From positions 358,615 through 422,614 of the forward strand of contig OY253690.1 in assembly GCA_958009085.1 (NCBI GenBank): a stretch of 64,000 bases of DNA, in the 5' to 3' direction. This DNA comes from Protoeuglena noctilucae (lineage: Eukaryota > Chlorophyta > Pedinophyceae > Marsupiomonadales > Marsupiomonadaceae). A program made the translations under genes and the position numbers. The first letter of the stretch is position 1. Every line of letters begins with the position of its first letter. This document shows, in pieces, positions 1,273 through 24,673 of this stretch. Below the pieces are notes generated by a model. The model did not search any database. It was not told the origin of the DNA and saw only the letters and a program-made list of their open reading frames with translations.

Positions 1273-1277
1273 GCGCA
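1273..1277. repeat. Candidate target-site duplication, left copy (GCGCA)
   Basis: GCGCA directly precedes the left terminal repeat, and the same 5-mer directly follows the right one at 24669-24673. Five to six base duplications are usual for retrovirus-type integrases of Polintons and PLVs. In GC-rich DNA a 5-mer match could be chance. Confidence 0.6.
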
Positions 1278-1552
1278 AGCAGCAGTGGTGGGGTAAGACC
1301 AGCGCCAGCGCAAAACTTTTTTGGCCATTTGGAAAGCTAACGGCGAGACTCGAACTTTCGACGCCTGACGAAAAAGCCCTTTGAAACGCGAACTGACAGC
1401 GCCGAAAACGCCAGAAAACAACGAAACGACGAAAATCGCCGTTCGAAAACGCGAAATTTCGAACAAGCGCTTCGCGGGACAGACAGCGGTCGGGGTCGAG
1501 GCCACGACCTGCCGACAGGCCACTCTGGAACGCGAAGGGGCATGCAAATTTC
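1278..1552 (+). repeat. Left terminal inverted repeat
   Basis: The outer part (about 1281-1462) is identical, in reverse complement, to 24487-24668. The inner part to about 1552 aligns less well with the reverse complement of roughly 24340-24437. The extreme end reads AGCAGCAGTGG here against AGCAGTGG on the right, a one-triplet difference. The terminal AG matches what is often seen in Polinton-type elements. Confidence 0.9.
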
Positions 1553-1575
1553 CGAACGACCCTCATCCGAATCGG

Positions 1576-2043
1576 ATGCTCCTGGCTGCGATCATGGGTG
1601 CCGCTCGTGACCGACCCGCCTCGATGCCCTTCCATCACCTCGAGCGGCACATCCTGGGGCAACTCGAGCAGAGGCCGCGCCACGGATACACCATGGAGAG
1701 GGCGCGTGGGTTCCTCGCGTCGGAGCAGGGCCAGGCGTTCATGGCGTACGCGTACTGCCTCGACAGCTGGCACCGGTTCCGGCCCATCGTGGACTACTGC
1801 AGGGGGGTGCGCATCCGGGAGTCCTTGGAGGATCGGGTGGGGCGCGATGGGGACGATGGGTTGGGGTGCATGCTGTGCCATGGAGAGATCGGTCCATCTC
1901 CCGCTGCATTCTTGCCCTGCGGGCACAGGGTCTGCTGCCGCAAGTGCAGGGATGATGTGTACCACTTGATCAAGGCCAGATGCCCGAAGTGCTGCCAGCG
2001 CATCTTCCAGTACGCCATCCGTGTGAAGAATTCACAGATGTAG
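1576..2043 (+). CDS. RING-finger protein (putative E3 ubiquitin ligase)
   Basis: This 155-residue frame ends in a C3HC4-type RING. The pattern begins CMLC, continues with CGHRVCCRKC after 13 residues, and closes with a CPKC pair. RING domains of this kind recruit E2 enzymes for ubiquitin transfer, and large algal viruses often carry them to redirect host proteins. The upstream part (MPFHHLERHILGQLEQRP onward) has no domain I recognise. The frame is open back to 1381, inside the terminal repeat, but that part is a by-product of repeat sequence, so I start at the ATG at 1576; 1624 is an alternative. It is the first gene inside the left repeat and is transcribed inward. Function is inferred from the RING alone. 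Confidence 0.7.
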   Translation: MLLAAIMGAARDRPASMPFHHLERHILGQLEQRPRHGYTMERARGFLASEQGQAFMAYAYCLDSWHRFRPIVDYCRGVRIRESLEDRVGRDGDDGLGCMLCHGEIGPSPAAFLPCGHRVCCRKCRDDVYHLIKARCPKCCQRIFQYAIRVKNSQM

Positions 2044-2113
2044 GTGCCCACCCAGCACTAGGAACATAGCCGTGGCCCGGACCACCTCGAACGCCGCCCA
2101 CTTCCAGTTGGCC

Positions 2114-2581
2114 TCAACCGCAGAGGCGAAAACACCCGGCCACCTTCTCGAACGCCTGCTCCGCCATGTCCTCCAGGTCCTCGGCCGACATCCGCTCGAT
2201 GGCCCGGCGGGCGGCGGGGCCCACGGCCTTGGCCGCTCCCGCCTTCCTCAGCGAGTAGGCCAACCCGGCCGAGTCCCCGGCCCCGGCCTTGACGGCGTGG
2301 GCGAAGGCCGCGACGACCGCCTCGAGCTTCGAGAACGGCCGCAGGCCCCGCACCGCCCGGTGCTGGGACGCCGCCACGAAGGCGTCGTGGCGCGCGTCGA
2401 GTGGGCTCATGTCGTCGTCCGCCAGGGCGCCCAGGAGGCTCGCCAGCGCGGCCGCCCGGGTGTCCTTGTCGGCCGCGGCCCCATGGTACAGCTTGACCAG
2501 CTCGGCGAGGTAGCCGGCCGTCGGCTGGGTCAACTTGGGCGCCAGCTTTTCCTGCCAGTCGAGCGCGAGGAGGTCCGCCAT
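2114..2581 (-). CDS. Hypothetical viral protein, Ala/Asp-rich, helical
   Basis: This 155-residue protein starts MADLLALDWQEKL. It is dominated by Ala, Leu, Asp and Lys, with patterning expected of amphipathic helices, and has no recognised motif or membrane segment. It is the last gene of the leftward block, downstream of the capsid gene, and converges with the RING gene. A T-rich tract (TTTTATTT in the + orientation, 2604-2611) lies upstream of the start and may belong to its promoter. I do not recognise the family. Confidence 0.6.
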   Translation of the reverse strand: MADLLALDWQEKLAPKLTQPTAGYLAELVKLYHGAAADKDTRAAALASLLGALADDDMSPLDARHDAFVAASQHRAVRGLRPFSKLEAVVAAFAHAVKAGAGDSAGLAYSLRKAGAAKAVGPAARRAIERMSAEDLEDMAEQAFEKVAGCFRLCG

Positions 2582-2604
2582 GGTTGATTCTTGACCGCCC
2601 CGTT

Positions 2605-2859
2605 TTATTTCTCGGCGACGGCGTGCCGGGCCGAGGCGGCGGCGATTAAATCCGCGAGCTTCCGCTGTCCCTCGTCCCGCGGCGCCTTGTACTCGACGGG
2701 GTACTTCTTGCCTGGACGCAGGGGTTTCCACAGCGAGAGCCCGCCCGGCTGGTAGGGCCCCCGCACGATCTGGGGGGTCTTGTCGAGGCGGTCCCGCTCC
2801 GAGAGCCGCGGCCACGACACGGCGCCGGTCACTTGGAGTCCGAGCGGCTGTCTCTGCAT
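2605..2859 (-). CDS. Small hypothetical viral protein
   Basis: This 84-residue basic protein (MQRQPLGLQVTGAV start) lies between the capsid gene and the 155-residue gene in the same leftward block. No domain is recognised. An A8 tract on the + strand (about 2875-2882) separates it from the capsid stop. Its position beside the capsid gene suggests a virion-related role, but that is only inference. Confidence 0.5.
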   Translation of the reverse strand: MQRQPLGLQVTGAVSWPRLSERDRLDKTPQIVRGPYQPGGLSLWKPLRPGKKYPVEYKAPRDEGQRKLADLIAAASARHAVAEK

Positions 2860-2893
2860 GACCTCGGGGCGGGGAAAAAAAACGGACGGGCGG

Positions 2894-4054
2894 TCACTCC
2901 GTCTGGGCCAGCTCGCCCGTCTCGGTGTCGATCGAGATGGACTTCGTCACCTCCAACGCCACGAGCAGCATCGAGGCGGCCGTGGTGCCGGCCACGTGGA
3001 TGACCAGGGGCGAGGCGATGTCGTACGTCGACGTCCCGGACACCAGGTTCGTCGCGGCCGCCCCGGGGAGCTGCATGTTGTACACGCTCGCCCAGAACTC
3101 CGACCGCCAGTTGTTCGTCGTGACGTTCAGGCTCTGGATCCCGCCCACGCCGGAGGGACCGTCCTGGGCCAGCGCCATGTCCGTGGCGGTCCGGATCTCG
3201 TGCTTGGCCTCCTGGAGAGCCCACCCGTTCAGCAGCATGCCGCCGAGTTCGGCGTTGATGGTCCCGGCCGTCTCGAAGGTGCTCAGGTAGAACTTGCTGG
3301 TCGTGGTCTGGAACGCTGGGTCCACGCGGAAGGTGATGATCTTGTCCAGGCTCAGAGTCGCCTTCGTCATCGGAAAGTCGATGCTCGTCGTGAAGCTCGG
3401 CGAGACGAAGCTCGAGAAGTGCTTGAAGGGTAGCTTGAACTGCTTCACCGAACGCAGCGCCCGGCGGTACGTGTCCTGGGCGAATTGCACACAGTCCATG
3501 ACCAGGTACGCGTTCGAGACGCCGGCCACCGTGCCGCCCGTCGCCGTGCCGATCACGTTGGGGTCCGCCAGCTGGAGCTGGAGCACTGTGTTTCGGAAGA
3601 GCGAGAAGTCCATGTACCGGTTGTGGCTGCCGGACAGCGCCCCGTAGGCGAATCCCTGGACGACGGCGGGGCCGTTGAAGGCGTCGACGGCGAATGTCTG
3701 CGGCAGCGCCGACTGGCGGTACGTGGGCCAGGTCAGCTGCTTGAGCTGGCTGACCACCTTCCCGTACCGCTGCAGCTGGGTGACCGAGTACCCGGAGACG
3801 GAGACGTCGACCTGCTGGATGATGGCGTCGGCCACGGGGATCGAGTACGCCGTCGTGCCGGCGTTCATCGAGAACTCGAAGTAGATCTTCAGCGAGCGCA
3901 GGTCCGCGATCACGGGGGGGATGTTGAAGACGACCGACTCGCCGGCCGCCTTCACGCCGGACGCCGTCCACGGCACCCGGATCGTGGAGCGGCTGATGTC
4001 GTCCATCAGCCGCTGTGCCCGGAAGCTGAGGACCTTGGGGAGTGCGTCGGACAT
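2894..4054 (-). CDS. Putative major capsid protein (double jelly-roll type)
   Basis: This 386-residue protein starts MSDALPKVLSF. It is rich in alternating hydrophobic strands, with segments such as LRSLKIYFEFSM and IIQQVDVSVSGYSV that resemble the first jelly roll of PLV capsid proteins, where a strand is followed by a V-x-V-x-G turn. There are no transmembrane segments and few charged clusters. The frame runs further upstream, but the ATG at 4054 follows an A/T tract and a perfect hairpin and gives a clean N-terminus. The adjacent integrase (43 bp upstream, same strand) and the packaging ATPase elsewhere in the element support a virion role. The family call is by pattern, not by alignment; a structure prediction showing two jelly rolls would settle it. 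Confidence 0.7.
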   Translation of the reverse strand: MSDALPKVLSFRAQRLMDDISRSTIRVPWTASGVKAAGESVVFNIPPVIADLRSLKIYFEFSMNAGTTAYSIPVADAIIQQVDVSVSGYSVTQLQRYGKVVSQLKQLTWPTYRQSALPQTFAVDAFNGPAVVQGFAYGALSGSHNRYMDFSLFRNTVLQLQLADPNVIGTATGGTVAGVSNAYLVMDCVQFAQDTYRRALRSVKQFKLPFKHFSSFVSPSFTTSIDFPMTKATLSLDKIITFRVDPAFQTTTSKFYLSTFETAGTINAELGGMLLNGWALQEAKHEIRTATDMALAQDGPSGVGGIQSLNVTTNNWRSEFWASVYNMQLPGAAATNLVSGTSTYDIASPLVIHVAGTTAASMLLVALEVTKSISIDTETGELAQTE

Positions 4055-4097: not shown

Positions 4098-5072
4098 TCA
4101 TTCCTTGGCCCGTTTGATCTCGTCACGCCGCAGCAGCCGGCGCGTCCCGGAGACCCGGTAGCTCCCGCCATCCACCTGCTTGACGACCCGCGGCGTGACG
4201 TCCCAGACCCCCTTCGACCGCTTCGACAGCGGCCCCTGCGCGCTCGGGAGCATGACGAGCACGCGGTCGCCCTCGCGGATCGGGTTCTCCTCGGGGGGCC
4301 CTGGCTCGCCGACCCTGCGGTAGGCGCGCAAGATCCGGAGCTCCTCCCCTTGCGCCGCCCTCTGCCAGGTCTTCCCCCACATGGGCGCGTCGGCCGCCTC
4401 GTTCGGCGGCATGCCCGTCGTCGCGTTGTCCCGCTTGTTGTACGCCGTGACGACGTCCGCGAACACCTCCCTCCACGTAGGGTTCTGCTTCAGCTTCTGG
4501 CGCCGCGCCATGACGTGGGCGGTCTTCGTCCGCAGCACTCGGATCATGGCCTCGACCTGCGGCGCGTGCTGCTGGACGATCAGGCGGATGCCCCGCTCCT
4601 TCAGGAACGCCCGCCCCTCGTTCGACGACCACGCCCCCTCGCCGTCCGCGATGATGCAGTCCCACTTGTGTCCCTCGTCCAGGATCTTGCCCAGCCCCTT
4701 CAGCACCTGGTCCCTCTCCTTGGACTGCAGGTCCTCGTAGTACAGCTTGCGGCTGAGGCCGTCGACGACCAGCAGCAGGTACTTGGAAGCCGCGCCCTTC
4801 GTGAAGACCTTGTTCAGGCCCAGGTCCTCGTTGGTCCTCGCGAAGTCGATCAGGTCCATCGACGCCTCGCGGCCGCCGTAGCGGGCGGGGATGATCCTGC
4901 GCGTGGGGGCGTCGGGCTTGTCGAACGGGGTGTCGGTCTTGGCGAGGTGCGCCTCGACGTCCTGCGCGGTCACGTTCCCGTTCAGCCTCTTCTTCGCTTC
5001 CACCAGGAGCTGCTTCTGGCCAGTGACCCCCTCGTCCTGCAGCTTGTTCAGGACCTCCTCGATGCTGGTCAT
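4098..5072 (-). CDS. Retrovirus-like integrase (rve/DDE type)
   Basis: This 324-residue protein is the integrase expected for Polinton-like elements. It cuts and joins element ends into host DNA and so explains the terminal repeats and short target duplication. The catalytic triad can be placed at Asp73 (SMDLIDF), Asp143 (IIADGEGAW) and Glu174 (APQVEAM). Between the first two is the usual core strand KYLLLVVDGLSRKLYYEDL (97-115). The C-terminal region, about 262-320, has the small beta-barrel/chromo-like pattern GDRVLV...VWDVTPRVV...YRVSG typical of PLV integrases. The N-terminal 60 residues are helical. The start at 5072 lies 53 bp downstream of the replication-gene stop. All three acidic residues are present, so the enzyme may be active. 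Confidence 0.85.
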   Translation of the reverse strand: MTSIEEVLNKLQDEGVTGQKQLLVEAKKRLNGNVTAQDVEAHLAKTDTPFDKPDAPTRRIIPARYGGREASMDLIDFARTNEDLGLNKVFTKGAASKYLLLVVDGLSRKLYYEDLQSKERDQVLKGLGKILDEGHKWDCIIADGEGAWSSNEGRAFLKERGIRLIVQQHAPQVEAMIRVLRTKTAHVMARRQKLKQNPTWREVFADVVTAYNKRDNATTGMPPNEAADAPMWGKTWQRAAQGEELRILRAYRRVGEPGPPEENPIREGDRVLVMLPSAQGPLSKRSKGVWDVTPRVVKQVDGGSYRVSGTRRLLRRDEIKRAKE

Positions 5073-5125
5073 CCGTGTCTCTTCAAGGGAGCGCAGAGAA
5101 AAAGGGGGGTTTGTCTACACAGCGC

Positions 5126-8100
5126 CTAGGACTTCTTCTGCAGCGCACCGAAGGGCGCGTTGCACCCGCGGCACGCCGGGCGCAGGTCGGTCTGGCTCGG
5201 GTCGTGGGCGGCCTGGTCGTCGATGCGGTCGAGCTCGAGCAGGGCGATGTCCGTGCACCCGCACGCCAGGCACCGGAAGCCGTGGCGCTTGAAGAGCTCG
5301 TGGATCTCCGACGCCGTGACGCCGCGTCCGGGGCGCCCCGCGTCCTTGTCCTGCTGGTTCAGCCGCTTAGCCATGGCGTCGAAGTGCTTGTGGAAGCCCC
5401 CGCTGACCTCGGCGTGGTCGATGGCGATCCGGAGCTGGTCCAGGTCCTTGCACCGCGTGATGGCCGTCCACACGAGGCGGTCATTGTTTGGCCAGTCGGC
5501 GCTCCAAGCGAGCACGATGTCCTTCTCGATCGTCGACCCCTGGAGCGCGTGGCTCGTGTAGCCCCCCTCGATGCGGAAGTTGCGCCGCACCTCTTCCATG
5601 CTGCGGAACGTGACCTCGACATCGTCCTCGGCCGCGAACGTCACCTGCCCGGACTCGTCGACGTCGGTGATCTCGTACGTCTCGTTCATGATGAAACTGC
5701 TGAAGCGCTTGGTATCCCCCTTGAACACCCACCTCCCCCCGGTTTGCGCCGCGTCCTTGTCCCTCCGGTTGACGGCGTGGCACGCGTACGCGTTGCTGGC
5801 GGCCACGACGATCTCCTTGGCGGTGTCGATGTTGGCGACCGTGCATGTCGGGATCCCAAACTTCTTGGCGAACGTGACGGGGTCCAGGGTCTGGCCCGAG
5901 TCGATGTGATCCTTCATGGCGAGGAGCTTGGCGTGCTGCTGCTTCGGCAGTCGCTTCATGACCAGGAGGAGGCACTGGACGGGGAAGAGCTGACGCACCG
6001 CGTCCTCGTATAGCGCGTCGTTGTGGGCGTCGTCGATGGGCTTGTTCTGGCGCGGGTCGCCCGTCGCGATGAAGCGGATCTCCGGGTGCTCCTCTATGTC
6101 CCGCTTCAGCACCTCCAGCACGGGCAGCGGCATCATGTAGATCTCGTCGATCATGACGGCCTTGAGCCCCTCGATCTTGTACCCGGGCCGGCGGACCTTC
6201 TGGTCGAAGACGCGCTGGCCGAACCACTTGGTGGCCGTGTACGTACGCCACCCGGCCTTCCGGTGCCCCTTCAGCAGCATGTGGGTGGGGGCCACGACCA
6301 CCGACTCCTCGGGCTTCAGGTTCTTGAGGGCCGTCCACGTCTTGCCGCTCCCGGGCAGGTCCGAGACGATGGCGATACGGTGGTGGGCCGAGAGGTCGAT
6401 GCCCGCCTTTTCCTCGTCTGCCGTGAACGTGAGCCGCTGGACGGGGCTCGGCGCCGGCGCCGCCATCTGGTACAGCCGGGTCGCCGTCGGGTCCATCGTG
6501 TAGCTCTTCGACAGGAGCTGCTGGCGCTTCGTGGGCCAGATGCCGTGGGGGGTCGCCGCCCGCCGCGTGGGGGGCTTGAAGGACCCGATGTCGCGGACGG
6601 ACGGGTGGGGGTCATCCGGCTCTGTCACGGGCTCCATCGTGGGCGTCGCGGGCGGCGGCTGGACGGGCACCGCGATCCACGGCGTCCGGGTGAGCATGTC
6701 TGGGTCGGCGATGAACTCGTCGCCCGGCTCGGTGCAATCGTCGTCGTCGTCCTCGTCGGCCTCCGCTGCCCCGCCCATGTCGAGGGGGAGGTCTCGCACG
6801 TACAGCTCGTCGACATTGACCCCGAGGACCCCGTAGGCCTGGAGGTCGAAGGCCTTCTCCGCGAGCAGGGTCTGGGCCATGCAATAGACGGCGTCCTGGA
6901 CCAGCGTCCACCCGTTGTTCGCCGGGACGCTCTTGTGGAACGCCATCAGCGTCCACCTCTTGTCGACCTGGGTCTTGTCGCCGCTGAGGAGGTCCTCCAG
7001 CATCAGCTGGCCCAGCTTGGGCATTTCTGCCCGCTTGCCCTTGGCGGCGTGCCCGACCTTGACGACGTGGCCCCCGTCCTTGGCGTGGTCGCGGGCGGCA
7101 TACGCCTGCCGCGGGACCGTGCAGAGGAAGCCCTTGGTGACCTTCGACGCCTTGCGCCCCGACGTCCCGATGGCGGCGTTGACCATGTGCTTCTTCTGCC
7201 CGTCGGTCAGCCCGTCGCTCGTGAGGACGGCGTCGACGTGGCGGCGGGCGCGGAGCACGAGCGTCTCCTTCGGGCACAGCTCTACCACGGGCGTGGCGGT
7301 CTCGCCCGTCTTGTCCCTCCAACGCTTGAGCTGCCACCCCATCTTGCGGCTGACCTTCCCGCGCCAGAACAGCTTCCCGTGTGGCGTGTCGAGGTGCTCG
7401 AGCGGGACGTCGACGATGTAGGCGGTGTCCTCGAGGATCTCCGCGTCGGGCTGCACGAGCGTGGGGAGGCAGAAGGTCGACAGCACCATGACGGGCAGGG
7501 GCTCGCGGAGGATGGACGTGTAGAAGCGACGGATGTCCAGCGCGTAGAAGCGGTCGGGGATCTCGTCTACGAGCTCGATCCGAGCGGCGGGGACGGGCTG
7601 GGCCGCGTCGACGACGTTGAAGAGCATCGCGCCGGCTGCCTCGCACCACTCTGAGTAGGCCCTCGGTGGGCACACCGCCTTGAGCAGTCGCGTGTTGAGC
7701 TCCTCGTACAGGTACCCGTTCTCGGCGCCCTTGAGCTGGAGGGCGTCCTCGAACACCTCGTCGCTCCTCTCCGGCAGCGTCACCGTCACGCGGGCGCGCT
7801 CCTTGCGGTCGTCGCCGACGGCGTACTGGATCCACCACGTGAAGCCCGTCACCCGCTCGCCCTTGTGGTGTACCTCGAGGACCTGGTGACCCAGCTCCCG
7901 CAGGCGGTGAATCATGGCCATCAGGTGCTCGAACGACGGGCACAGGTAGCGGCCCGGCGCCTTGACGGCGAGGAGCTCCTCGGCGGTCTCGAGGCGGCCG
8001 TGGAGGATCGAAGCCCCCCGCGGAGGCGCGATGGCCCGAGGCGGCTCGGGGAGCACCGACTCGGGGACCGTCCGCAGTGGCACCACCTTGTCGCCCTGGA

Positions 8101-9614
8101 CGCGGAAGCGGCGGGCCACGCTCATGCGGACGACGGGCCACGCGTGGTTGTCGTGCACGAGGATGACGACCATCCTGGGGGCGGCCCTGTCCGACTTCTC
8201 CGACATCGTCACCTTGACCTTGCCCCGCTTCGTGCACGTCATGGACACCGTCACGGCCTTGCGCACGCCCGAGTCGAGGACGAGGCCGCTCCACGCCTCG
8301 ACGACGGCCACGTTGCAGACGCCCTGGAACGCGGGCACGATCTTGTCCCCCGGGATGGCCTTGCCCTTGAGCGTCTCGAGGACGGCGAGGTACTCCGTGT
8401 GCCGCTCCTCGCACTGCATCCTGGCCGCCTCGTAGACGCACCCCTCCGACGGGCACGCCTTGGCCACGGGCGGTTTCTCCACGTCGTATGGGGTCAGCTC
8501 GCAGTTGAGCCACGACTTGTCGGGGTCCGCGACGACCATGTTGCGGAGCCCGAAGCCCACGTACCACGGCCCGATGGCCTCGATCCTGATGCACGCGCCG
8601 TCCGAGCTCGACCCCGAGTCGTGGTGCTTGTAGCGGTCCAGCCGCTCGAGCAGGTCGGGCGCCACCGTCTTGAGCGTCGTCGACAGCTCGGACGACGTCT
8701 CGGCCTCGAAGGCGGGCTGGTCGGCCTCGTCGGTCGGGACGGGAGATCTTGTACACGTGGCCGACCTGGAGCCCCAGCTCCTCGATGCGTTTGGTCACGG
8801 GCACCTCGGCCGCCCCCGACTTCCACCGCCACGCGCACAGGTGCTCGCCGTCGACGACAAGGAGCTCGACCGTCTCGATGTTCCTGTCGACGACCTGCAT
8901 CCAGTCCTGTCGCATCAGGGCCGCCGCGTTCTTGTGTCCGAGCGCCTCGCGGAGCTCCTCCGTCGTCTGGGGGTTGCCGAGGACCGCGTACGCCGTGGCG
9001 TCGCCCCGCCGCCCCGAGACCACGTGGGCGTCGAGGTTGACGAACCCGTAGACCTGGAAGCCCACGCCGCGGATCTTCGACTCCGTCTCGGCCCGCGCCC
9101 GCGCCCGCTTCGCCGACTCGAGCTCGAGGACCACGTAGCGACCCGGCCCCTTGCGGTTGACCGTGTAGCCGGCGGGGAGCTCGAGGACGGCCTTGGCCTC
9201 GTCGAGCGTCTGGGGGTCGGCCTGGCGGAGCGCCGCGTTGGCGCCGCGGACGTCGAGGGGCTGCCGCGCCTCGTCGCCCTTGCGGTAGAAGACGGGCCCC
9301 TGCTCTTGCGGCTGGTCCGGCTCGTGGGCCTGGATCCTCCCCCCCTCGAAGACCTGCCGCGCCTGCTCCTGGAAGCGCTCGACGCGCTTCTCGCGGACGG
9401 TCGGCTTCCGCACGCGCCACGGCGCGCCGTCGCCTTCTCGAGCCACCGTGTAGCCCTCGGGCAGGCCGTCCGGAAAGCGCGCGAGGACGGCCTCCCGCGT
9501 CGTGTCGGGTGGCAAGCGCTCGAGGTCCCGGTTGATCGTGTCGAGCGATCGGGATTCGACCTGGCCGATCGTCCGGCCGGTCACGCGCTGGAATCTCGTC
9601 GACGGCTTGGGCAT
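5126..9614 (-). CDS. Replication protein: polymerase-like domain + SF1 helicase + HNH-like zinc domain, one frameshift
   Basis: Reading starts at 9614 (MPKPSTRF) and continues in frame for about 293 residues to VYKISRP. A one-base shift near 8731-8740 is needed to enter the 1,179-residue frame ending at 5126; both sides are coding-like. In the long part, DIRRFYTSIL (7510-7540), MVNAAIGTSG (7161-7189) and GVNVDELYV (6798-6823) are spaced like DNA polymerase motifs A, B and C, although C is atypical. Then comes an SF1 helicase: Walker A DLPGSGKT (6338-6361), PTHMLLKG, Walker B MIDEI (6140-6154), GDPRQNKP and the C-terminal TSHALQGST. The end holds CLACGC...CRGCN, an HNH-like zinc site with DR where DH is usual. 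Role: copying and unwinding viral DNA. Helicase is certain; polymerase is inference. The shift may be a sequencing error or a disabling mutation. Confidence 0.75.
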
Positions 9615-10447: not shown

Positions 10448-10465
10448 CTGTCCCTGACTTAGAAT

Positions 10466-16831: not shown

Positions 16832-17688
16832 CGCTCCGGGAGCGGGAGGAGCTTCAGCCCGACGAAGCAGTCGTGGCTGCCCACCGTGGCCTGGTCCCAC
16901 ATCGCGATGAACTGCTCGGGCGTGATGTCGTCGTCACACAGCGACGCCGCGATGTCCTTCTTGACCTTCATGTTCGAGCACTTGTACAAGGCGAAGGTGT
17001 TCACCATGCTCCGCAGGCTGAGCGGCAGCGTCTGCGTCCAGCTCTGACTCGAGATGAAAACGGAGCAGCGTCGGTGCCGGCACAGGATCACGAAGCGGTT
17101 CAGCGGCCCGCTCATCCACCGGCTGAAGACGGTGTTGTCCCCGAGGTGGTCGTCGATGACCAGGCATGCCGTGGGCTTGCCGCGGGGGTACCTCGGGGCC
17201 GGCTTCCAGTCGAAGAAGTCGAGCAGGTCGAGCTCCTCGCCGGTCAGCCTCTCGATCTCGGGCTGGCCGAACTCGTTCGACGGCAGCCGCCTGAACTTCT
17301 GGTACACGGGCGCGTAGGACTCGCCCAGCTCGTGGCGGCTGAGGTGGTGCTCGATCACGTCCGTCACGTGGTCCATGTCGAAGTGGTCGAGGTACTCGAT
17401 GTCGACGCCGAGCGCCCTGAACGCATTCAGGGTGCCCTTCACCTTCTTGTCGCGGCCGCTCGTCGGCGAGCACCAGAAGACCCGGTCCCACGCCTTGGCC
17501 TCCAGGTACATCTTGAGGAAGTTGAGGAGGAACGTCGACTTGCCGCGGCCGATCCCGCCGACGACGTAGCCGAACAGCACCTGGTTGTCCTTCCCCACGT
17601 CGGGGAGGCCCTCGGGCCCCTCGCGCACGTGGTCCTCGTCGCCCGACAGCGGCACGAGCCGCGGCACAGAGACCTTCGAGAACTGCAT
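16786..17688 (-). CDS. Genome-packaging ATPase (FtsK/HerA, A32-like)
   Basis: This 300-residue protein carries Walker A GGIGRGKS (44-51), Walker B CLVIDD (175-180) and an SSQSW segment that fits the sensor region of A32-type ATPases. This family pumps viral DNA into preformed capsids and is a core gene of Polintons, PLVs, virophages and nucleocytoplasmic viruses. The frame is open upstream through an A8 tract (in-frame Lys-Lys), but the ATG at 17688 gives the normal family length. The opposite-strand gene begins 42 bp away at 17731, so a bidirectional promoter with the T8 run (17704-17711) is likely. All nucleotide-binding residues are intact. Confidence 0.85.
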   Translation of the reverse strand: MQFSKVSVPRLVPLSGDEDHVREGPEGLPDVGKDNQVLFGYVVGGIGRGKSTFLLNFLKMYLEAKAWDRVFWCSPTSGRDKKVKGTLNAFRALGVDIEYLDHFDMDHVTDVIEHHLSRHELGESYAPVYQKFRRLPSNEFGQPEIERLTGEELDLLDFFDWKPAPRYPRGKPTACLVIDDHLGDNTVFSRWMSGPLNRFVILCRHRRCSVFISSQSWTQTLPLSLRSMVNTFALYKCSNMKVKKDIAASLCDDDITPEQFIAMWDQATVGSHDCFVGLKLLPLPERYRRNLDEAFVIGSP

Positions 17689-17730: not shown

Positions 17731-18069
17731 ATGTCCACGTACACGATGGCTGACGTCCGCGCCCTCGAGCGGGAGATCCAGCGCGCTCACCCGGGCCTCG
17801 ACTCGTGGTTCGCCCAGGTCCTCGCCCACCAGCACCTCCGCGACGACCTCGGCCGGGAATTTCAGGACCAGGAGCATGCGCCGCTGCTTTGTTCTCCAAT
17901 CGAGGCACTCCCTGACGAGCGGGGTGCTGACGTGGGCGACGGGGAGCCTGAGCTTCCCGACCGAGACGCTGCGGGTCCGCCTGGCGGCGGTCCTGATGCC
18001 GGCGGTGAGCTTCCAGGCGCGGGCGCCCATCACGCTGACGCTGAACGGGGCGGCGACCAGCCTGCCTGA
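17731..18069 (+). CDS. Short ORF overlapping the next gene; possibly its shifted 5' part
   Basis: The first 45 residues or so (MSTYTMADVRALEREIQ start, WFAQVLAHQHL middle) look like a real helical N-terminus. The rest is Gly/Pro/Glu-rich and antisense-like, and overlaps the beta-rich gene starting at 17876 in the +1 frame. Two readings are possible: a short separate protein with an overlapping end, or an N-terminal domain of the next protein cut off by a frameshift near 17870. I cannot choose between them. Confidence 0.35.
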   Translation: MSTYTMADVRALEREIQRAHPGLDSWFAQVLAHQHLRDDLGREFQDQEHAPLLCSPIEALPDERGADVGDGEPELPDRDAAGPPGGGPDAGGELPGAGAHHADAERGGDQPA

Positions 18070-18562
18070 CACGACGCTCGCCAGCTACGAGGACACGGCC
18101 GCGTGGCTGACGGCCAACACGACGGGGCTCTCGTGGGACTACATCGAGTCCAGCAACCTCTTCCGCGTGACCAACGCGAGCGGCGCCCCCGCGACGGTCC
18201 AGTGCGACCCGCTCGGCTTCGGGACGGCCGTCGTCGTGCCCGACGGCGCGTCCGTCTCGGGGGAGGTGCAGCCGGTCCTCCAGTGGCTCCACGGCATCGT
18301 GGTCCGATGCAACCTGTTCCGCGGCCTCGCTTCGACGGCCGGCGGCTCCGTCGACGCCGGCGACGTCGCGGGGGTCGTGTCCACGGACGGCGAGACGATC
18401 CGCTGGGAGAACCTGTCGGACGACTACCAGGTGTGCCGCTCGGACGCCGTCCGCTCGGGCATAGAGGTGCGGCTCCAGGACCTCGACGGCAACCTCCTCG
18501 TGCCGACCCGCAACGTCACCGTCGTGCTGTCGATCGCCCCGAATTTTACCGGGGTGGAGTAA
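17876..18562 (+). CDS. Putative minor capsid/penton-like protein (228 aa)
   Basis: Starting MRRCFVLQSRHSLTSG, the protein is beta-rich. The C-terminal pattern IEVRLQDLDGNLLV...VTVVLSI resembles the small virion proteins (penton or minor capsid) that PLVs and Polintons encode next to the ATPase. There are no charged coiled coils or membrane segments. Neighbours are the divergent ATPase upstream and a Pro-rich protein whose ATG lies 2 bp after this stop, so the two are probably co-transcribed. The penton assignment is inference from shape and place. Confidence 0.5.
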   Translation: MRRCFVLQSRHSLTSGVLTWATGSLSFPTETLRVRLAAVLMPAVSFQARAPITLTLNGAATSLPDTTLASYEDTAAWLTANTTGLSWDYIESSNLFRVTNASGAPATVQCDPLGFGTAVVVPDGASVSGEVQPVLQWLHGIVVRCNLFRGLASTAGGSVDAGDVAGVVSTDGETIRWENLSDDYQVCRSDAVRSGIEVRLQDLDGNLLVPTRNVTVVLSIAPNFTGVE

Positions 18563-18564
18563 AC

Positions 18565-20394
18565 ATGGCCGACGACACGCTCTGGATCTGGCATGACGTC
18601 CTCGAGGGGCTCCGCCAGATCCGACCCCGGACGGAGGACGTCGAGCGCCTGCAGGCCGCCGTCGAGCGGGTGCGGGGGATGACGACGAGGGAGAGGCTCG
18701 ACCTCGCCACGCGGCTCTACGTCCACGAGACGGGCTCGCCCGACGTCCACGAGGGCACCGTCGACCTGGTCGACCGCCTCATGCGGCTCGAGGCCGCCAA
18801 CCTCATCGCGGAGATCCGCCCCGGCCCCAACCAGGTCACCCTCCCCGCCTACCACGACCGCCGCCTCACCTTCCGCACCTCCCTTCCGCGCCTCGACTTC
18901 CTCGCCGACATCGACCACCTGGTCGCGGAGCGCAAGTCGTCCCCCCCGCCACTCGTCAACCCCCACAAGCGCGCCGCCGAGCGCGACGCCGTCAACCCCA
19001 ACGCCCCCAAGAGGTTCCGCACGCACGAGCCCGAGGAGTCGGAGACCGCCGCCGTCGCGCCCGTCGCGCCCGAGGAGTCCGAGGAGACGAGGTCAGTGGC
19101 GGTGCGAGCCCCGAAGTGGAAGCGCGACCAGCTCCAGGCGCGCGGCGGGCCGTCGAAGTCGAAGGCTACTTCAAACCACTCGGCGCTCCGCCTCGCGGAC
19201 CTCGAGGGGTACGAGCGGTCGGGCGGGCTGTCCCGCGTGACGGAGGAGCCTGCTGTGTCCGAGTCCGTCGGCGAGAGCCCGTCGACGACGTCGAAGGCGG
19301 CCGGGCCGAGCGAGGCCGGGCCAAGCGAGACGGTCCGCGTCTCCGAGGCGACGAACGCGTACGCCCCCGAACCGGCCTCGCCGGCGTCTCGGCTGCCCGC
19401 GATCACGGAGGAGTCGTCGCGGAGCACGGGCATCGGCGGGGCCGCCCGCACGACGACTGTGTGGGACACCATCAACTCGCTCCGCAAGCGGGTGGGGCTC
19501 CCGCGGATGCGATTCGACGCCGAGATCCAGACCGAGCCCCCCGAGGAGCCCATGCCCGAGCGGCCCCCGTCGCCACACGAGGAAACCGCGATGGCCGAGG
19601 TGCCGCCGTCGCCGCGGTTCGAGCGCGTGGACAACCCGGAGATCGCGATGTACGAGCTGCCCGACATCGTCCCCAAGGGCACCAAGACCGGCCGCGGCGT
19701 CCGGAAGGGGAAGTCGAAGCCGACCAAGGTGGTGGTCTTCCGGGACGGCCCGGGCGGGCCGCCCGGACCTCCGGGAGCCGGACCCGGGACCGCCATCATG
19801 GAGCCGGAGGAGCCGGAGGAGCCATCCGGTGCGGGGCCGTCGACGGCGGGGGCAGGGGGCGGCGCACCTCCTCCCGGACCGCCTCCGGGCGCTGTCGAGG
19901 ACGACAACGGCGTCCCGGACCACGCCGTGATCCGGCTGGCCGAGCTGACGCAGGGTCCGGGGTACTCCGTGGCTGCAGGAGGGGGCGGGGAGCCCCCGGG
20001 CGGTCCCGGACCCGACGGCGGGGACGTGTACGAGGACGAGCCGATGGGGCCGCCGATGCCGACGGGGACGCACGACGCCGTCGTCGCCGACCCGCCCACG
20101 GCGTCGCAGCCGGCCGCCGAGCCGGAGCCCGACGTCCCCATGGACCCGGAGTTGGGTCAGGAGCCAGCCGCTGGTCCCGTCCCGAAGGAGGAGCCGGACG
20201 ACTACGGGCCCATGCCGGTGGACCACGGCTACCTGGAGGAACACGAGACGAAGTGGCCGCCGTTCGACGGGGGCTCCCCCGAGGACGACGCAGGCGTCGA
20301 CCCTGTGTCGGCGTCGGACGCGGACCCCGAGTGGCCGCGGCTACGCCCGCCGATGCACAGGATGCTCGGCATCTGGTCACGATTTACTATATAG
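18565..20394 (+). CDS. Proline/glutamate-rich viral protein (609 aa)
   Basis: Residues 1-130 are a folded-looking, helical charged domain (MADDTLWIWHDVLEGL start). From about 130 onward the chain is low-complexity: Pro, Glu, Ser, Gly, with acidic blocks and a short collagen-like stretch (GPGGPPGPPGAGPG, about 397-410). A basic nuclear-localisation-like patch (NPHKRAAERDAVNPNAPKRF) lies near 132-151. There is no signal peptide. It may be an internal virion or DNA-associated protein, or an unordered tegument-like factor; I do not recognise it. It starts 2 bp after the preceding gene, and its stop codon overlaps a TATA-like box for the lipase gene. Confidence 0.65.
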   Translation: MADDTLWIWHDVLEGLRQIRPRTEDVERLQAAVERVRGMTTRERLDLATRLYVHETGSPDVHEGTVDLVDRLMRLEAANLIAEIRPGPNQVTLPAYHDRRLTFRTSLPRLDFLADIDHLVAERKSSPPPLVNPHKRAAERDAVNPNAPKRFRTHEPEESETAAVAPVAPEESEETRSVAVRAPKWKRDQLQARGGPSKSKATSNHSALRLADLEGYERSGGLSRVTEEPAVSESVGESPSTTSKAAGPSEAGPSETVRVSEATNAYAPEPASPASRLPAITEESSRSTGIGGAARTTTVWDTINSLRKRVGLPRMRFDAEIQTEPPEEPMPERPPSPHEETAMAEVPPSPRFERVDNPEIAMYELPDIVPKGTKTGRGVRKGKSKPTKVVVFRDGPGGPPGPPGAGPGTAIMEPEEPEEPSGAGPSTAGAGGGAPPPGPPPGAVEDDNGVPDHAVIRLAELTQGPGYSVAAGGGGEPPGGPGPDGGDVYEDEPMGPPMPTGTHDAVVADPPTASQPAAEPEPDVPMDPELGQEPAAGPVPKEEPDDYGPMPVDHGYLEEHETKWPPFDGGSPEDDAGVDPVSASDADPEWPRLRPPMHRMLGIWSRFTI

Positions 20395-20407: not shown

Positions 20408-21034
20408 ATGGACGCCCGCACCATGGCCCTCCTCGCGCAGGGCGCCTACCACTCCGACCCCGTCGTCGGCCCGTGGGTCCGTCGGGGGGGCACGCGGACC
20501 ATCCACGTCTACCGCAGGGCCGACGACCCGGGCGTCGAGGCGATCGCGTACCGCGGCACGGAGGTGTCGGACCTCGACGACGTCATGACGGACCTCGAGC
20601 TCATGGCGGCGGGGGGGATGGGGTCGGGCGCCTTCTGGCTGCCCGTCAACGCCGCCCTCAAGGACCGCGTGCAGGAGGCCGTGGCTTTCGCCCGCACCCG
20701 CGTCAGACCCGGCGTCAGGCTGGTCCACGTCGGCCACTCGCTCGGAGGGACGTGCGCCCTCCGCGCCGCCTACGTGGCGGGGGGGATCGCCAACGCCTTC
20801 GCCCCGTACGTCCCCGTCCGCCTCCCGTGGAACCAGCTCAGGTACCGCCCGGGCATGACGGTGTACGGCAACCGCGTCGACCCCATCATGTGGGAGACGA
20901 TGCTCGACCGCAACTTCCGCCCGGGCTCGGGGTCCGCGAGGTGGAGGCTGATCAGCGAGGCGGGGCAGGGGCCGACCCGGGCGGACCAGATGGGGCACGG
21001 CCTCGGCCCGTGGACGAGCGGCCGCGCGGCGTGA
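20408..21034 (+). CDS. Class-3 lipase-like hydrolase (208 aa)
   Basis: The protein has the alpha/beta-hydrolase nucleophile elbow VGHSLGGT with Ser111, a candidate acid Asp158 in YGNRVDPI and a candidate His197 in QMGHGLG. The strand AYRGTEVSDLDDVMTDLEL (48-65) matches the region before the lid in class-3 lipases. It would cleave acyl esters of lipids. Lipase or phospholipase genes are recurrent in PLVs and could serve membrane breach during entry or exit. It has no signal peptide. The TATA-like box upstream suggests its own promoter. Catalytic residues look complete; substrate is unknown. Confidence 0.8.
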   Translation: MDARTMALLAQGAYHSDPVVGPWVRRGGTRTIHVYRRADDPGVEAIAYRGTEVSDLDDVMTDLELMAAGGMGSGAFWLPVNAALKDRVQEAVAFARTRVRPGVRLVHVGHSLGGTCALRAAYVAGGIANAFAPYVPVRLPWNQLRYRPGMTVYGNRVDPIMWETMLDRNFRPGSGSARWRLISEAGQGPTRADQMGHGLGPWTSGRAA

Positions 21035-21065: not shown

Positions 21066-22052
21066 ATGACGAAGCTCCGCGTCGCCGACCTCTTCTGTGG
21101 CCTCGGGTCCTTCCACCGCGCCGCCAAGGCGCTCGGCCACGAGGTCGTCTTCGCCGCCGACCTGGACCCGCGGGTCCGAGAGGTGTACCGCGAGACGCAC
21201 GGCCTCGAGCCCGCGGGGGACATCGGGACTGTCGACTGGGGCGCCGTCCCCGACTTCGACGTGCTGTGCGCGGGGCCCCCCTGCCAGAGCTTCTCCACGG
21301 CGGGGCGGCGGGGCGGCCTGGGCGACGCCCGCGGCGACCTCATCCTCAAGATCGCCGACGTCCTGCGCGCGAAGCGGCCGCGGTGGTTCGTCGTCGAGAA
21401 CGTCCCCGGCCTCGTCACCATCGACGCGGGCGAGGCCTTCCGCACCGTCCTGCGGACGTACAAGGACGCGGGCTACCGGGTCAAGTGGGCCATCCTCCGC
21501 AGCCACGAGCACGGCCTCCCGCTCTTCCGCAGACGCGTCTTCGTCGTCGGCTCCCGCGACGGCGAGCCGTGGACGCCGCCGCCGCCGATGCCCTTCGCCT
21601 CGCGCCCCACGCTGTCGGAGGCGCTCGGGAGGCCGTTCAAGGCGAGGATCTCGCGGTCGCCCAAGACGACGTACAACTCGACGGCCACCGACAAGCGGCA
21701 GTGGGCCCGCCTCGCCCTCGAGGACGGCTCGAGCTACTGCCTCACCGCCGACGACGTCCAGAGGCTCATGGGGTGGGGGCCCGACGAGATCGATTGGGGC
21801 CGCTGGAGCTCGAGGGCCGCGAGGATCCGGATGCTGGGCAACAGCATCCCGACGTGCCTCAGCCACGCGGTCCTCGCCGGCCTAGGCGTAGAGCCGGTCG
21901 AGGGCGCGGGCCGCGCGGAGGACGAGGGCGGGGTCGGTCCCGAGCTTGAAGGAGACGGAGCGGTGCCGCTTGGAGAGCTCGAGCTCGACGGCGGCGGAGT
22001 CGGAGCCGTCGAGCAGGAGCTCCGAGCCGATCTGCTCGAGCAGAGCGCCTAG
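21066..22052 (+). CDS. DNA (cytosine-5) methyltransferase
   Basis: This is a C5-methyltransferase transferring methyl from S-adenosylmethionine to cytosine. Motifs in order: FCGLG (10-14, motif I), PPCQSFS with catalytic Cys73 (motif IV), VVENV (109-113, motif VI), FRRRVFVVG (154-162, motif VIII) and LGNSI (257-261, motif X). The target-recognition region is short, so this is a compact enzyme of bacterial/viral style. The last 55 or so residues, after motif X, are Glu/Gly-rich and lie antisense to the convergent 93-residue gene, so the natural end may be nearer 21900. It may mark viral DNA against host or viral nucleases, or act on the host genome. No restriction partner is seen. Confidence 0.88.
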   Translation: MTKLRVADLFCGLGSFHRAAKALGHEVVFAADLDPRVREVYRETHGLEPAGDIGTVDWGAVPDFDVLCAGPPCQSFSTAGRRGGLGDARGDLILKIADVLRAKRPRWFVVENVPGLVTIDAGEAFRTVLRTYKDAGYRVKWAILRSHEHGLPLFRRRVFVVGSRDGEPWTPPPPMPFASRPTLSEALGRPFKARISRSPKTTYNSTATDKRQWARLALEDGSSYCLTADDVQRLMGWGPDEIDWGRWSSRAARIRMLGNSIPTCLSHAVLAGLGVEPVEGAGRAEDEGGVGPELEGDGAVPLGELELDGGGVGAVEQELRADLLEQSA

Positions 22053-22163
22053 GTCCACCTTGATCCTCGAGGCGTCGACGACCTCGACCACGTCCACCGC
22101 CGTGCAGTCGAGCGTCGCCAGGAGCTGGCCGCCGCAGCTGAGAACCACCATCGTTATCTGCAT
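21882..22163 (-). CDS. Small hypothetical viral protein (93 aa)
   Basis: Starting MQITMVVLSCGGQLLATLDC, it looks like a compact alpha/beta domain, with an acidic Leu-rich middle (LGALLEQIGSELLLDG) and a basic end. No motif is recognised. It converges with and overlaps the tail of the methyltransferase gene by about 170 bp. An A6 tract (22172-22177 in + orientation) lies just upstream of its ATG. The frame is open further upstream only with non-ATG starts, so 22163 is chosen. Confidence 0.55.
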   Translation of the reverse strand: MQITMVVLSCGGQLLATLDCTAVDVVEVVDASRIKVDLGALLEQIGSELLLDGSDSAAVELELSKRHRSVSFKLGTDPALVLRAARALDRLYA

Positions 22164-22245
22164 GCCCCGCGGAAAAAACGGCCCAAGGGGATCGGCGCCA
22201 GGCGTTGAATTAAAAGGGGGAGAGCAACACCAGCAACCAGCGAAG

Positions 22246-22581
22246 ATGATGCGGGAGAAGCGCGAAGACATGGCGCGGGCCCTGTCCCTGCCCTGTTGGT
22301 ACCTGGAGTCGCGGCTCTTCCGCGACGGGCTGTTCCCCCAGATCGAGCGGCTCGACGACGCGAGGGACTTCGACGCCATCCTCGACCTGGTCGGCGGCGA
22401 CGAGGACAACGCGCTGGCCCTCCGGTACCACATGGCGGCGACGCAGGGGCTGTACAAGTGGAACATGGCCCAGGAGAGGGTGCTCGTGCCCTTCAAGCTA
22501 CGCGATCTCGACGACGCCTACGTCGACCTCTACATCGCCATGTCCCGCACCACGGCGGGGGGGACGGTCGTCCTCGTGTGA
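22246..22581 (+). CDS. Small hypothetical viral protein (111 aa)
   Basis: Starting MMREKREDMARALSLP, the protein is acidic and helical, ending SRTTAGGTVVLV. No family is recognised. It is preceded by an AT island (GAATTAAAAGG, 22207-22217) that is a good promoter candidate. A possible 34-bp intron (22578-22611) would join it in phase to a further 55-codon frame ending at 22777, but that length is very short for an intron, so I keep the simple stop. Confidence 0.5.
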   Translation: MMREKREDMARALSLPCWYLESRLFRDGLFPQIERLDDARDFDAILDLVGGDEDNALALRYHMAATQGLYKWNMAQERVLVPFKLRDLDDAYVDLYIAMSRTTAGGTVVLV

Positions 22582-22829: not shown

Positions 22830-22883
22830 TTCGCGCGCGCGTGGTTTCGCGGACACTTTCTGCGCTTCCGACTCCGATCGAAG

Positions 22884-23597
22884 ATGCCGAAGGCCCCGAT
22901 CAAGAAAGGCGAGCCCTACGAGGAGCGCGCGCGCGCGCTCCTTGCGCGAGTGAGGCTCGATAGGTGCATCGTGCCCTTCAACAACAAGGGGGTGCCGAAG
23001 CGCTGCGGCAACAAGCCGCATATGACCATCGCGAACACGAGGCTGCACCTCAACTGCGTCGAGCTTGCGTGCGAGAGGCACCGCGGGTGAGGGGTCCGGG
23101 CGACGAATCCCCCGCAACCTTGCGCGCGCTTCCGGGCCCCACCGGCATCACCCGACGCCCTTGCAGGGTCGTGGAAGAGCTCCTGAGGGAGTACATCATT
23201 AACAACGGCGGAAACCCCACCTGGTGAGGGGCCTGGACTGGTCCGGACAACGGCGTGTGCTCCCGGAAACCGAGTCTCAGTCTCTGTCGTCTCCGAGTCC
23301 ACAGGGTCCACCAAACGGACATGCACTTCGAGGCACTCAAGATCGCCGCGAGGGCCAACCCGGGCGACGACACATACGAGATCCCCCTCTGGCTCCCGTG
23401 CACTGTCGGGGAGACGACGGCAGGCAGCACCCACGCCCCCGCAGATCACCCACAAGCGCCGCAAGGTGGTCTCCGGGACGGGTGCCGCGTCTGGAGCCAG
23501 GTGCGTGTGTGTCAGTGCGTCGCTGCACACGGGGTGTCCGGGACGGGCCGCTGATGACACCTCTCGCCTGGTCCGCAGTAACGAGATGACCGGCTAG
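22884..23597 (+). CDS. Spliced small zinc-finger-like viral gene (4 exons, 123 aa)
   Basis: Proposed exons are 22884-23086, 23167-23223, 23305-23397 and 23579-23597. The first three junctions are GTGAGG...CAG, GTGAGG...CAG and GTGCAC...CAG, all in phase 2, and the joined frame stays open to TAG at 23595-23597. Exon 1 alone also gives a 68-residue frame. The protein has Cys pairs and a His suggestive of one zinc site: RCIVPFNNKGVPKRCGNKP then LNCVELACERH. Exons 2 and 3 contain helix-like VVEELLREYIINNGG and MHFEALKIAARANPGDD. A TATA-like box precedes it. Introns are 80, 81 and 181 bp, similar in size to host introns. The last small exon is the least certain. It may be a gene taken from the host. 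Confidence 0.55.
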
Positions 23598-23811
23598 AGA
23601 CGACGCAGGCGGCCGCAGTGTGGACGACACGGCCCCGACCTGGTGCGTGCCTGCGCCGCGTCACGGGGGGCATTACGCAGGCAGGCCGGGGGGCTGGGCT
23701 CAGACCGAGACGCTTGTTCGGTGTGCCCGCAGATCCATGCAAGTAGACTTTCGCTGGTCGCTGTTGCTGGTCGCCTGGCGCTGTCGTTGCTCCCCCCCGC
23801 TGATCCCCCCC

Positions 23812-23970
23812 TACCAGCGCAAGCTGGTGACCCACCCCCGGGTCGTTAATCTGGGATACGCCCGCCCGGCGTGTAACAAGTGGGTAGCCACTACCAGCGG
23901 AGGCTGGTGACCCCACCCTGGGTCGTTAATCTGGGATACGCCTGCCCGGCGTGTAACAAGTGGGCATGGC
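23812..23970 (+). repeat. Tandem repeat, 79-bp period, two copies
   Basis: The unit starts TACCAGCG at 23812 and again at 23891 and includes GGGTCGTTAATCTGGGATACG. The two copies differ at a few bases. A third degenerate start (TACCCAGCG) occurs near 23993. Confidence 0.8.
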
Positions 23971-24066
23971 GGCAGCCAACCAAACATGCACTACCCAGCG
24001 GGGGGGCCTTGATCTGTCAGCTCACCCCTGGGCGGGCACCCAGTTGAAGAAGAACCAGCGAGCCGG

Positions 24067-24330
24067 TGATCAAAGAACCCTCTGGCCGTTCCACCGGTCC
24101 AATTTTTTTTTGACAGATTTTGGGGAAATCTTTTTCGGTCTCCCCGAGCCGGCCATTGTCCGTTGTCCCCCGTTGTGATCAAAGAATCCCCTCGCATGGC
24201 CGTTCCACTGGTCCAATTTTTTTTTGACAGATTTTCGGAAATCTTTTTCGGTCTTCCCGGGCCGGCCGTTGTCCGTTGTCCGTTGTCCGTTGTGGTCAGC
24301 CCCCGCATGGCCGGTCCACCGGTCCAGTTT
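24067..24330 (+). repeat. Tandem repeat, about 109-bp period, two and a half copies
   Basis: The unit starts TGATCAAAGAA at 24067 and 24176, with a partial third copy from about 24295. Each full copy contains a T9 run followed by GACAGATTTT and CTTTTTCGGTCT. The end of copy two carries a small CCGTTGT expansion. Confidence 0.8.
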
Positions 24331-24339
24331 CTGACATAT

Positions 24340-24668
24340 GGGGGAAAACCCTTCGCGTTTCAGAGTGGCCTCCCGCCTGGTCAGGGCCTCTACCCTGACC
24401 GCTGTCTGTCACGCGAAGTGTGTCCCCGAAATTCTGGCGTTTTCGGCGCTGTCAGTTCGCGTTTCAAAGGGCTTTTTCGTCAGGCGTCGAAATTTCGCGT
24501 TTTCGAACGGCGATTTTCGTCGTTTCGTTGTTTTCTGGCGTTTTCGGCGCTGTCAGTTCGCGTTTCAAAGGGCTTTTTCGTCAGGCGTCGAAAGTTCGAG
24601 TCTCGCCGTTAGCTTTCCAAATGGCCAAAAAAGTTTTGCGCTGGCGCTGGTCTTACCCCACCACTGCT
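24340..24668 (-). repeat. Right terminal inverted repeat with internal duplication
   Basis: This is the inverted partner of the left repeat. It is longer because a segment of 101 bp is partly duplicated: the motif TTCTGGCGTTTTCGGCGCTG starts at 24432 and again at 24533. The outer 182 bp match the left repeat base for base by eye. Confidence 0.9.
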
Positions 24669-24673
24669 GCGCA
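24669..24673. repeat. Candidate target-site duplication, right copy (GCGCA)
   Basis: This pairs with 1273-1277 and marks the right virus/host junction. Host sequence continues with GGCCACCATGAGC. Confidence 0.6.

What the first reader, a model, noticed from the sequence alone, without database searches (positions are those of the whole stretch)
1273..24673. A near-complete Polinton-like virus sits in the subtelomere of a green alga
The element has both terminal inverted repeats (182 bp identical), a candidate GCGCA target duplication, integrase with full DDE triad, capsid-type protein, packaging ATPase, lipase and methyltransferase. Only one frameshift is seen. Identical repeat ends suggest recent integration, so the copy might still be mobile or able to be reactivated, for instance by a co-infecting giant virus, as known for some virophages and PLVs.
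Basis: partly seen in the sequence, partly recalled or inferred. Interest (0 to 1): 0.85.

Follow-up and report, generated by a model that had tools for sequence, protein, structure and literature searches.

The report
Integrated Polinton-like virus in green alga
A small DNA virus of a known type (Polinton-like) sits almost whole, but with its copying enzyme gene broken in two, near a chromosome end of an alga of the green lineage, and a shortened twin of it sits inside the integrase gene of a different virus of the same kind elsewhere in that genome.

Summary
Window 1281-24668 is an endogenous Polinton-like virus (PLV) 39 kb from a TTAGGG telomere: 182-bp identical inverted ends, rve integrase with conserved D-D-E triad, A32-type packaging ATPase, a capsid protein whose homologue's (low-confidence) model matches double-jelly-roll capsids, a fibre-like protein, a lipase-like protein and a C5-methyltransferase. 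Its frame is the broken one; a relative on contig C21 has it uninterrupted. The GCGCA target duplication is wrong: two paralogous empty sites and five sister insertions point to 4 bp (here AAGC, its right copy read as GCGC). The genome holds at least seven such elements in two groups. A 99.7%-identical copy on C6 lost 7.3 kb and lies inside the integrase gene of a group-B PLV. Differences between these two copies cannot be told from neutral drift (pN/pS 0.77, 36 changes), so 'recent and possibly active' is not supported, though not excluded. It is a new member of a known kind. The unusual and unexplained part is the virus-in-virus insertion: the nested copy's own integrase is truncated at the homologous place, to within a base or two.

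The parts
1281..1462 (+). left terminal inverted repeat, begins AGCAGTGG
   Evidence: arms 184 nt, 100% complementary (incl. 2 nt outside); ends fixed
24487..24668 (-). right terminal inverted repeat, ends CCACTGCT
1277..1280 (.). left copy of 4-bp target site, AAGC
   Evidence: comparison by eye with empty paralogous sites on C10 and C20
24669..24672 (.). right copy of target site, reads GCGC: last 2 bases match the target, first 2 (GC) perhaps a retained 2-nt viral end (inference)
   Evidence: same pattern in the C6 copy (left TCGT, right GCGT)
1393..2043 (+). RING-finger protein ORF (from CTG)
   Evidence: Pfam zf-C3HC4_3 28.3 bits (cut-off 27)
2114..2581 (-). small ORF, unknown
   Evidence: 100% in C6 copy
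2894..4054 (-). major capsid protein, probable double jelly-roll (386 aa)
   Evidence: 3 database relatives, all near-identical to proteins of this genome; fold matches
4098..5096 (-). retroviral-type (rve) integrase, D81-D151-E182
   Evidence: Pfam rve E 0.0045, below cut-off; triad invariant in 3 of 3
5126..8686 (-). polB-like motifs A/B/C + SF1 helicase + C-terminal HNH-like end (main part of split gene)
8691..9614 (-). N-terminal part of the same gene, in another frame
   Evidence: C21 homologue is one open frame over both parts
9935..10447 (-). ORF of unknown function, relative in C21 (35%)
10466..10858 (-). ORF of unknown function, relative in C21 (58%)
10882..16272 (+). about 1800-aa fibre-like protein with tandem repeats (fibre role inferred)
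   Evidence: PHROG matches E 2.9e-12 (unknown function) and 2e-9 (minor head protein); repeats; open 1780-aa homologue in C21
16379..16831 (+). ORF of unknown function, relative in C21 (35%)
16786..17688 (-). A32/FtsK-type genome packaging ATPase
17876..18562 (+). candidate minor capsid (penton) protein
   Evidence: relatives in C21 (57%), C3, C19; role inferred from place and size
18565..20394 (+). ORF of unknown function between penton candidate and lipase
20408..21034 (+). lipase-like alpha/beta hydrolase
   Evidence: (below cut-offs)
21066..22052 (+). C5-cytosine DNA methyltransferase
   Evidence: Pfam PF00145 E 9.9e-50
22138..22581 (+). small ORF with relatives in C21 (28-39%)
63853..63996 (+). 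TTAGGG telomere at the contig end

Best explanation
Window 1281-24668 is an endogenous Polinton-like virus, most likely of the Tlr1-like type (rve integrase plus polymerase-helicase-HNH fusion). Shown: virus-type gene set, inverted ends, insertion into a host repeat whose empty paralogues survive on two other contigs, and sister elements with exact 4-bp target duplications. Inferred: linear viral DNA with AG...CT ends was joined to a 4-bp staggered target by the integrase, and fill-in gave the 4-bp duplication; in the window copy and its C6 twin a terminal GC dinucleotide seems to have been kept at the right end. Also inferred: the element then stayed as a passive resident. Its polymerase-helicase frame is split, and the C6 twin lost 7.3 kb including the catalytic half of the integrase and the polymerase.
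For: TIRs; gene content; capsid fold (37 of 38 PDB chains at E<=1e-3, from 16 entries, are double-jelly-roll viral capsid proteins by their titles and my knowledge; one search includes a protein of the green-algal PLV TvV-S1); empty sites and sister duplications GGGG, CGCC, GTCG, TGTT, TGAC (an exact 4-mer match is expected with 0.0065 per element); copies in the same genome; dN/dS 0.38 (capsid) and 0.30 (ATPase) between window and C21 (computed from dN and dS), so the lineage was under selection before; pN/pS 0.77 between window and C6.
Against: Capsid models have low confidence (mean pLDDT 35 and 43), TM-scores to the PDB matches are only 0.17-0.29 over the query, and the better model is of a homologue 31% identical to the window protein. 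Neither polymerase nor helicase gave a PDB hit, and no polymerase profile of Pfam matched. The target duplication of the window copy itself is imperfect (2 of 4 bases). No relatives were found in IMG/VR by short patterns, so no tree was made. pN/pS rests on 36 coding changes.
Confidence: 0.92

Rival explanations
1. An intact, mobile or inducible provirus: recent insertion, released when a giant virus co-infects.
For: Identical 182-bp ends; capsid, ATPase, integrase, fibre and methyltransferase frames open; endogenous virophages of Cafeteria are reported active (start of the abstract of PMC10945749, seen).
Against: Split polymerase-helicase frame; differences from the C6 twin as in neutral drift; zero differences in 182 bp only bounds divergence to under about 1.6%.
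Confidence: 0.1
2. A canonical Polinton/Maverick or a mavirus-like virophage instead of a PLV.
For: Carries rve integrase, packaging ATPase and TIRs; the top PDB capsid match is mavirus.
Against: Polymerase-like motifs are followed by an SF1 helicase and an HNH-like end, the Tlr1-like layout (PMC11071308 passages); 4-bp duplications against 5-6 bp given for mavirus and Mavericks in a PMC8547959 passage - though virophage EMALEs there have mostly 3-5 bp.
Confidence: 0.06
3. Misassembly or contamination: a free virus genome joined to a host contig.
For: The window copy has an imperfect target duplication.
Against: Both flanks match a repeated host locus at the same point on C10 and C20; six further elements lie elsewhere in the assembly, five of them with exact 4-bp duplications.
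Confidence: 0.02

Closest known systems
Tlr1 element of Tetrahymena and other PLVs with pPolB-S1H fusion (PMC11071308 and PMC12721341, passages read)
   Same: rve integrase, TIRs, double-jelly-roll-type capsid, packaging ATPase, polB motifs followed by SF1 helicase and a C-terminal nuclease; motif C lacks its first Asp, as the passage describes for Tlr1-like helicases
   Different: host is a chlorophyll a/b alga; nuclease looks HNH (a known variant) rather than the GIY-YIG of Tlr1; 4-bp target duplication; capsid not alignable by sequence to anything outside this genome in my searches
PLVs of green algae: Cymbomonas (PMC10675990, passages) and TvV-S1 of Tetraselmis (BFVD hit; named a cultured PLV in PMC11071308)
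   Same: PLVs of green algae; a TvV-S1 protein is among the fold matches of the capsid homologue (E 7.9e-6)
   Different: no sequence-level relation was shown; clade not tested
Cryptophyte PLVs (PMC12220804, passages read)
   Same: long phage-fibre-like proteins, rve integrase in some clusters, short target duplications, nested mobile elements inside PLVs
   Different: the nested elements described in the passages are retrotransposons, here a PLV lies inside another PLV; that paper notes absence of lipase genes in cryptophyte PLVs, this has a lipase-like gene
EMALEs, endogenous mavirus-like virophages of Cafeteria (PMC8547959, passages read)
   Same: duplications mostly 3-5 bp, empty sites used to find them, truncated copies that keep TIRs
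   Different: virophages; the nested elements there are Ngaro retrotransposons

Membership tests
Polinton-like virus (PLV) | terminal inverted repeats around a 14-40 kb unit | tested here: met
   184-nt arms 100% complementary, 23,024 nt between them
Polinton-like virus (PLV) | double-jelly-roll major capsid protein | tested here: met
   37 of 38 PDB chains at E<=1e-3 (16 entries); but this is the model of a homologue (31% identity), pLDDT 43, TM 0.17-0.29. Window model weaker: of 10 BFVD matches at E<=1e-3, 3 are named DJR capsids, 5 unnamed, 2 other capsids
Polinton-like virus (PLV) | A32/FtsK-type packaging ATPase | tested here: met
   Pox_A32 18.5 bits, below cut-off 22.8; nucleotide-binding motifs conserved in 3 of 3
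Polinton-like virus (PLV) | minor capsid (penton) protein | tested here: inconclusive
   conserved gene next to the ATPase, no Pfam match of the C21 homologue
Polinton-like virus (PLV) | capsid maturation protease | tested here: inconclusive
   none recognised in the ORFs scanned, not every ORF was scanned
Tlr1-like PLV (pPolB-S1H) | rve integrase with DDE triad | tested here: met
   (below cut-off)
Tlr1-like PLV (pPolB-S1H) | polB palm fused to SF1 helicase | tested here: inconclusive
   helicase AAA_30 24.8 bits, below its cut-off of 27, Dda-like PHROG E 2.1e-4; palm motifs A, B, C seen in 3 of 3 sequences but no polymerase profile or PDB hit
Tlr1-like PLV (pPolB-S1H) | C-terminal GIY-YIG or HNH nuclease | tested here: inconclusive
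   PHROG endonuclease VII E 0.0017 and HNH E 0.039; CxxC...CxxC pairs conserved in the alignments
Tlr1-like PLV (pPolB-S1H) | N-terminal TP/vOTU domains | not tested
   N-terminal part lies in another frame and was not modelled; it has no Pfam or PHROG match
Polinton/Maverick | 5-6 bp target duplication | tested here: not met
   4 bp, exact, in 5 of 7 elements; the other 2 imperfect
Polinton/Maverick | pPolB with exonuclease domain, no helicase fusion | tested here: inconclusive
   helicase follows the palm motifs; exonuclease not searched for by structure
Mavirus-like virophage | separate SF3 helicase and dependence on a giant virus | not testable with these tools
   no SF3 helicase met in the ORFs scanned; dependence needs experiments

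The most novel reading that the evidence does not exclude
PLVs in this alga attack each other's integrase gene at one conserved spot. The C6 group-A copy interrupts the group-B integrase directly after the stretch that aligns with DGExAW at the second catalytic Asp (target 4-mer = codon 157 to codon 158 position 1, window numbering), and the same copy's own integrase is truncated at the homologous place, to within a base or two. A shared cut there, for example by the HNH-like domain of the polymerase-helicase or by integrase targeting, would be a homing-like weapon between rival proviruses. Chance alone can also give it: two breakpoints, one site in about 23 kb, noticed after the fact.
Probability: 0.07. 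Interest if true: 0.8.

Novelty: new member of a known kind. Interest (0 to 1): 0.42.

Why it matters
It adds a PLV lineage for which I found no sequence relatives outside this genome, in a compact algal genome. It shows from paralogous empty sites within one assembly how such elements insert (4-bp stagger), and it gives a case of one PLV inside another PLV's integrase gene, a natural test bed for competition between endogenous viruses. It also cautions that identical ends and a full gene list do not make a live provirus.

Tried and rejected
GCGCA as target duplication: rejected, because the two empty paralogues carry four more bases between CA and GGCC. Sequence search for capsid relatives: 2 hits of 7247 candidates, then 3 of 7996 with the alignment: P0001 (2 residues off the window protein) and P0002 (identical to C21), and P0003 (C3 without a 13-residue tandem repeat). 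None in PDB or PHROGs; IMG/VR by short patterns gave 3 and 80 matched stretches, 0 confirmed. ATPase in IMG/VR: 0 and 55 matched stretches, 0 confirmed. Polymerase-helicase relatives: 1, identical to the window and perhaps its own record, so it says nothing about a base-calling error. Polymerase region and whole main part against PDB: none; ATPase profile against PDB: one chance match. NCLDV capsid in the genome: 0, but the controls rang nowhere, so uninformative. Host species: not identified; the 18S family search did not complete, the primer pattern found 0, a paper search for one candidate genome led nowhere. A first pN/pS (0.80) read the fibre gene in the wrong frame; it was redone (0.77). 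The lipase pair was dropped because its C21 piece was in the wrong frame. Literature on PLV-in-PLV nesting: two searches and passages showed only retrotransposons nested in PLVs or virophages; this is no proof that none is in print; one search was a further listing without use.
Full report
What is there. The window is the right end of contig C23 (358615-422614) of a 26.3-Mb, 26-contig genome and ends in a TTAGGG telomere. Light-harvesting genes are present (21 matches to PF00504, exon by exon). The one translated matches PDB chains named chlorophyll a/b binding proteins (the listing shows no organisms; that this is the green LHCII type is my recall). So a chlorophyll a/b alga is supported; species, and primary or secondary plastid, are unknown. 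The element is bounded by inverted arms 1279-1462 / 24487-24670, 184 nt and 100% complementary.

Genes. On the - strand: capsid 2894-4054, integrase 4098-5096, polymerase-helicase 5126-9614 in two frames, small ORFs to 10858, ATPase 16786-17688. On the + strand: RING 1393-2043, fibre-like 10882-16272, penton candidate 17876-18562, an unknown 18565-20394, lipase-like, methyltransferase and a small ORF to 22581. The integrase triad D81, D151, E182 is invariant in the window, C21 and C3. The polymerase-helicase protein has motif A (D..YT.IL), motif B (K..VN.AIG..G) and a motif-C-like site (VDE, TDA) in 3 of 3 sequences, followed by an SF1 helicase and an HNH-like end. That is the Tlr1-like layout described in passages of PMC11071308 and PMC12721341. 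No polymerase profile and no PDB entry recognises it, so this rests on motifs and layout.

Copies and groups. Capsid, integrase, ATPase and end searches of the genome and piecewise comparison show two groups. Group A: window; C6:48372-64626; C21:406762-429856 (capsid 64%, ATPase 73%). Group B: C6:46078-70108, C8 about 151670-170947, C19:118199-146416, C3:1595279-1613690 (capsid matches 28-38% in C3, C8, C19; ATPase matches 35-50%). The C19 element holds about 9 kb of other DNA inside its ATPase gene (ATPase matches break off at 121212 and resume at 130218). GC: window element 68%, C21 68%, C3 and C8 49%, C19 with its insert 56%.

Insertion sites. Five elements have exact 4-bp duplications next to AG...CT ends: C6-B GGGG, C8 CGCC, C19 GTCG, C3 TGTT, C21 TGAC (read by eye); three of these (C6-B, C8, C19) have empty paralogous sites in the same genome. 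For the window, both flanks meet at one point on C10 (43140/43144) and C20 (863597/863596). The sites read CAAGATGGCC and CAAGCTGGCC, which fits a target AAGC (1277-1280) and excludes the GCGCA duplication. On the right the window reads GCGC, and the C6 copy reads GCGT against TCGT on the left: in both near-twins the first two right bases are GC, while group-A C21 is clean. I infer a retained viral-end dinucleotide; a 2-bp duplication with a longer right end, or substitutions, would read the same.

The nested copy. C6:48372-64626 is 99.7% identical to the window (44 substitutions in 14,790 ungapped bases; the last 1.3 kb, with indels, left out), lacks window 4625-11950 and has about 280 bases the window lacks. 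It lies inside the group-B integrase gene: the integrase matches stop at residue 157 on one side and begin at 158 on the other, while C8, C3 and C19 have the uninterrupted site. The nested copy's own integrase is truncated at codon 158, the homologous place; the junction is uncertain by one base and the duplication at the insertion is imperfect. I have no tested explanation.

Age and activity. Window against C6, in 12 genes or gene parts: 11 synonymous and 25 nonsynonymous changes, pN/pS 0.77, binomial p 0.45 against neutrality (replacing the misframed 0.80). Window against C21: dN/dS about 0.38 capsid, 0.30 ATPase, 0.57 methyltransferase, 0.72 fibre (from dN and dS; the lipase pair was dropped as misframed). 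So the lineage was once under selection, and the near-twins show no sign of it since. The polymerase-helicase frame is uninterrupted in C21 and split in the window; the public 1179-aa protein may be the window's own record, so a base-calling error is not excluded. Identical 182-bp ends bound divergence only to about 1.6% (3/182).

Verdict. A real, near-complete, probably inactive endogenous PLV, most likely of the Tlr1-like type; new lineage, known kind. The nested PLV-in-PLV insertion is the part worth following.

Noticed in passing
C6:46078-70108 (L029-L032): A group-B PLV, itself shortened, is interrupted by a group-A copy within its integrase gene; C8, C3 and C19 hold the uninterrupted site.
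   Followed up: partly
window 4624/4625 and C6:51718: The deletion edge in the nested copy's own integrase falls, to within a base or two, at the place homologous to the insertion point in the group-B integrase.
   Followed up: partly
window 56998-62979: A 1993-aa open frame made of Gly/Ser/Thr-rich repeats (periods 129 and 213 bp among others) just before the telomere; no Pfam match.
   Followed up: no
L046, C23:351747-356317: A 2.1-kb inverted repeat (99%) left of the window whose parts match window 28305-35902 at 82-98%.
   Followed up: no
C19:121214-130218 (L042, L043): About 9 kb of other DNA interrupts the ATPase gene of the C19 group-B PLV; part of it (126409-130221) is the same repeat in which the C8 group-B element sits.
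   Followed up: no
C8:147980-150237 and C6, C19 counterparts: The C6 and C19 group-B elements sit in copies of one duplicated locus, which supplies their empty sites.
   Followed up: partly
window 1-1278 and 24669-26668: The insertion locus belongs to repeats with matches on C5, C10, C12, C20, C22 and elsewhere on C23; the two empty sites on C10 and C20 lie 43 and 24 kb from contig ends.
   Followed up: partly
P0003 against L004:1468-2712: The public version of the C3 capsid protein lacks a 13-residue tandem repeat present in this assembly: strain difference or assembly matter.
   Followed up: no
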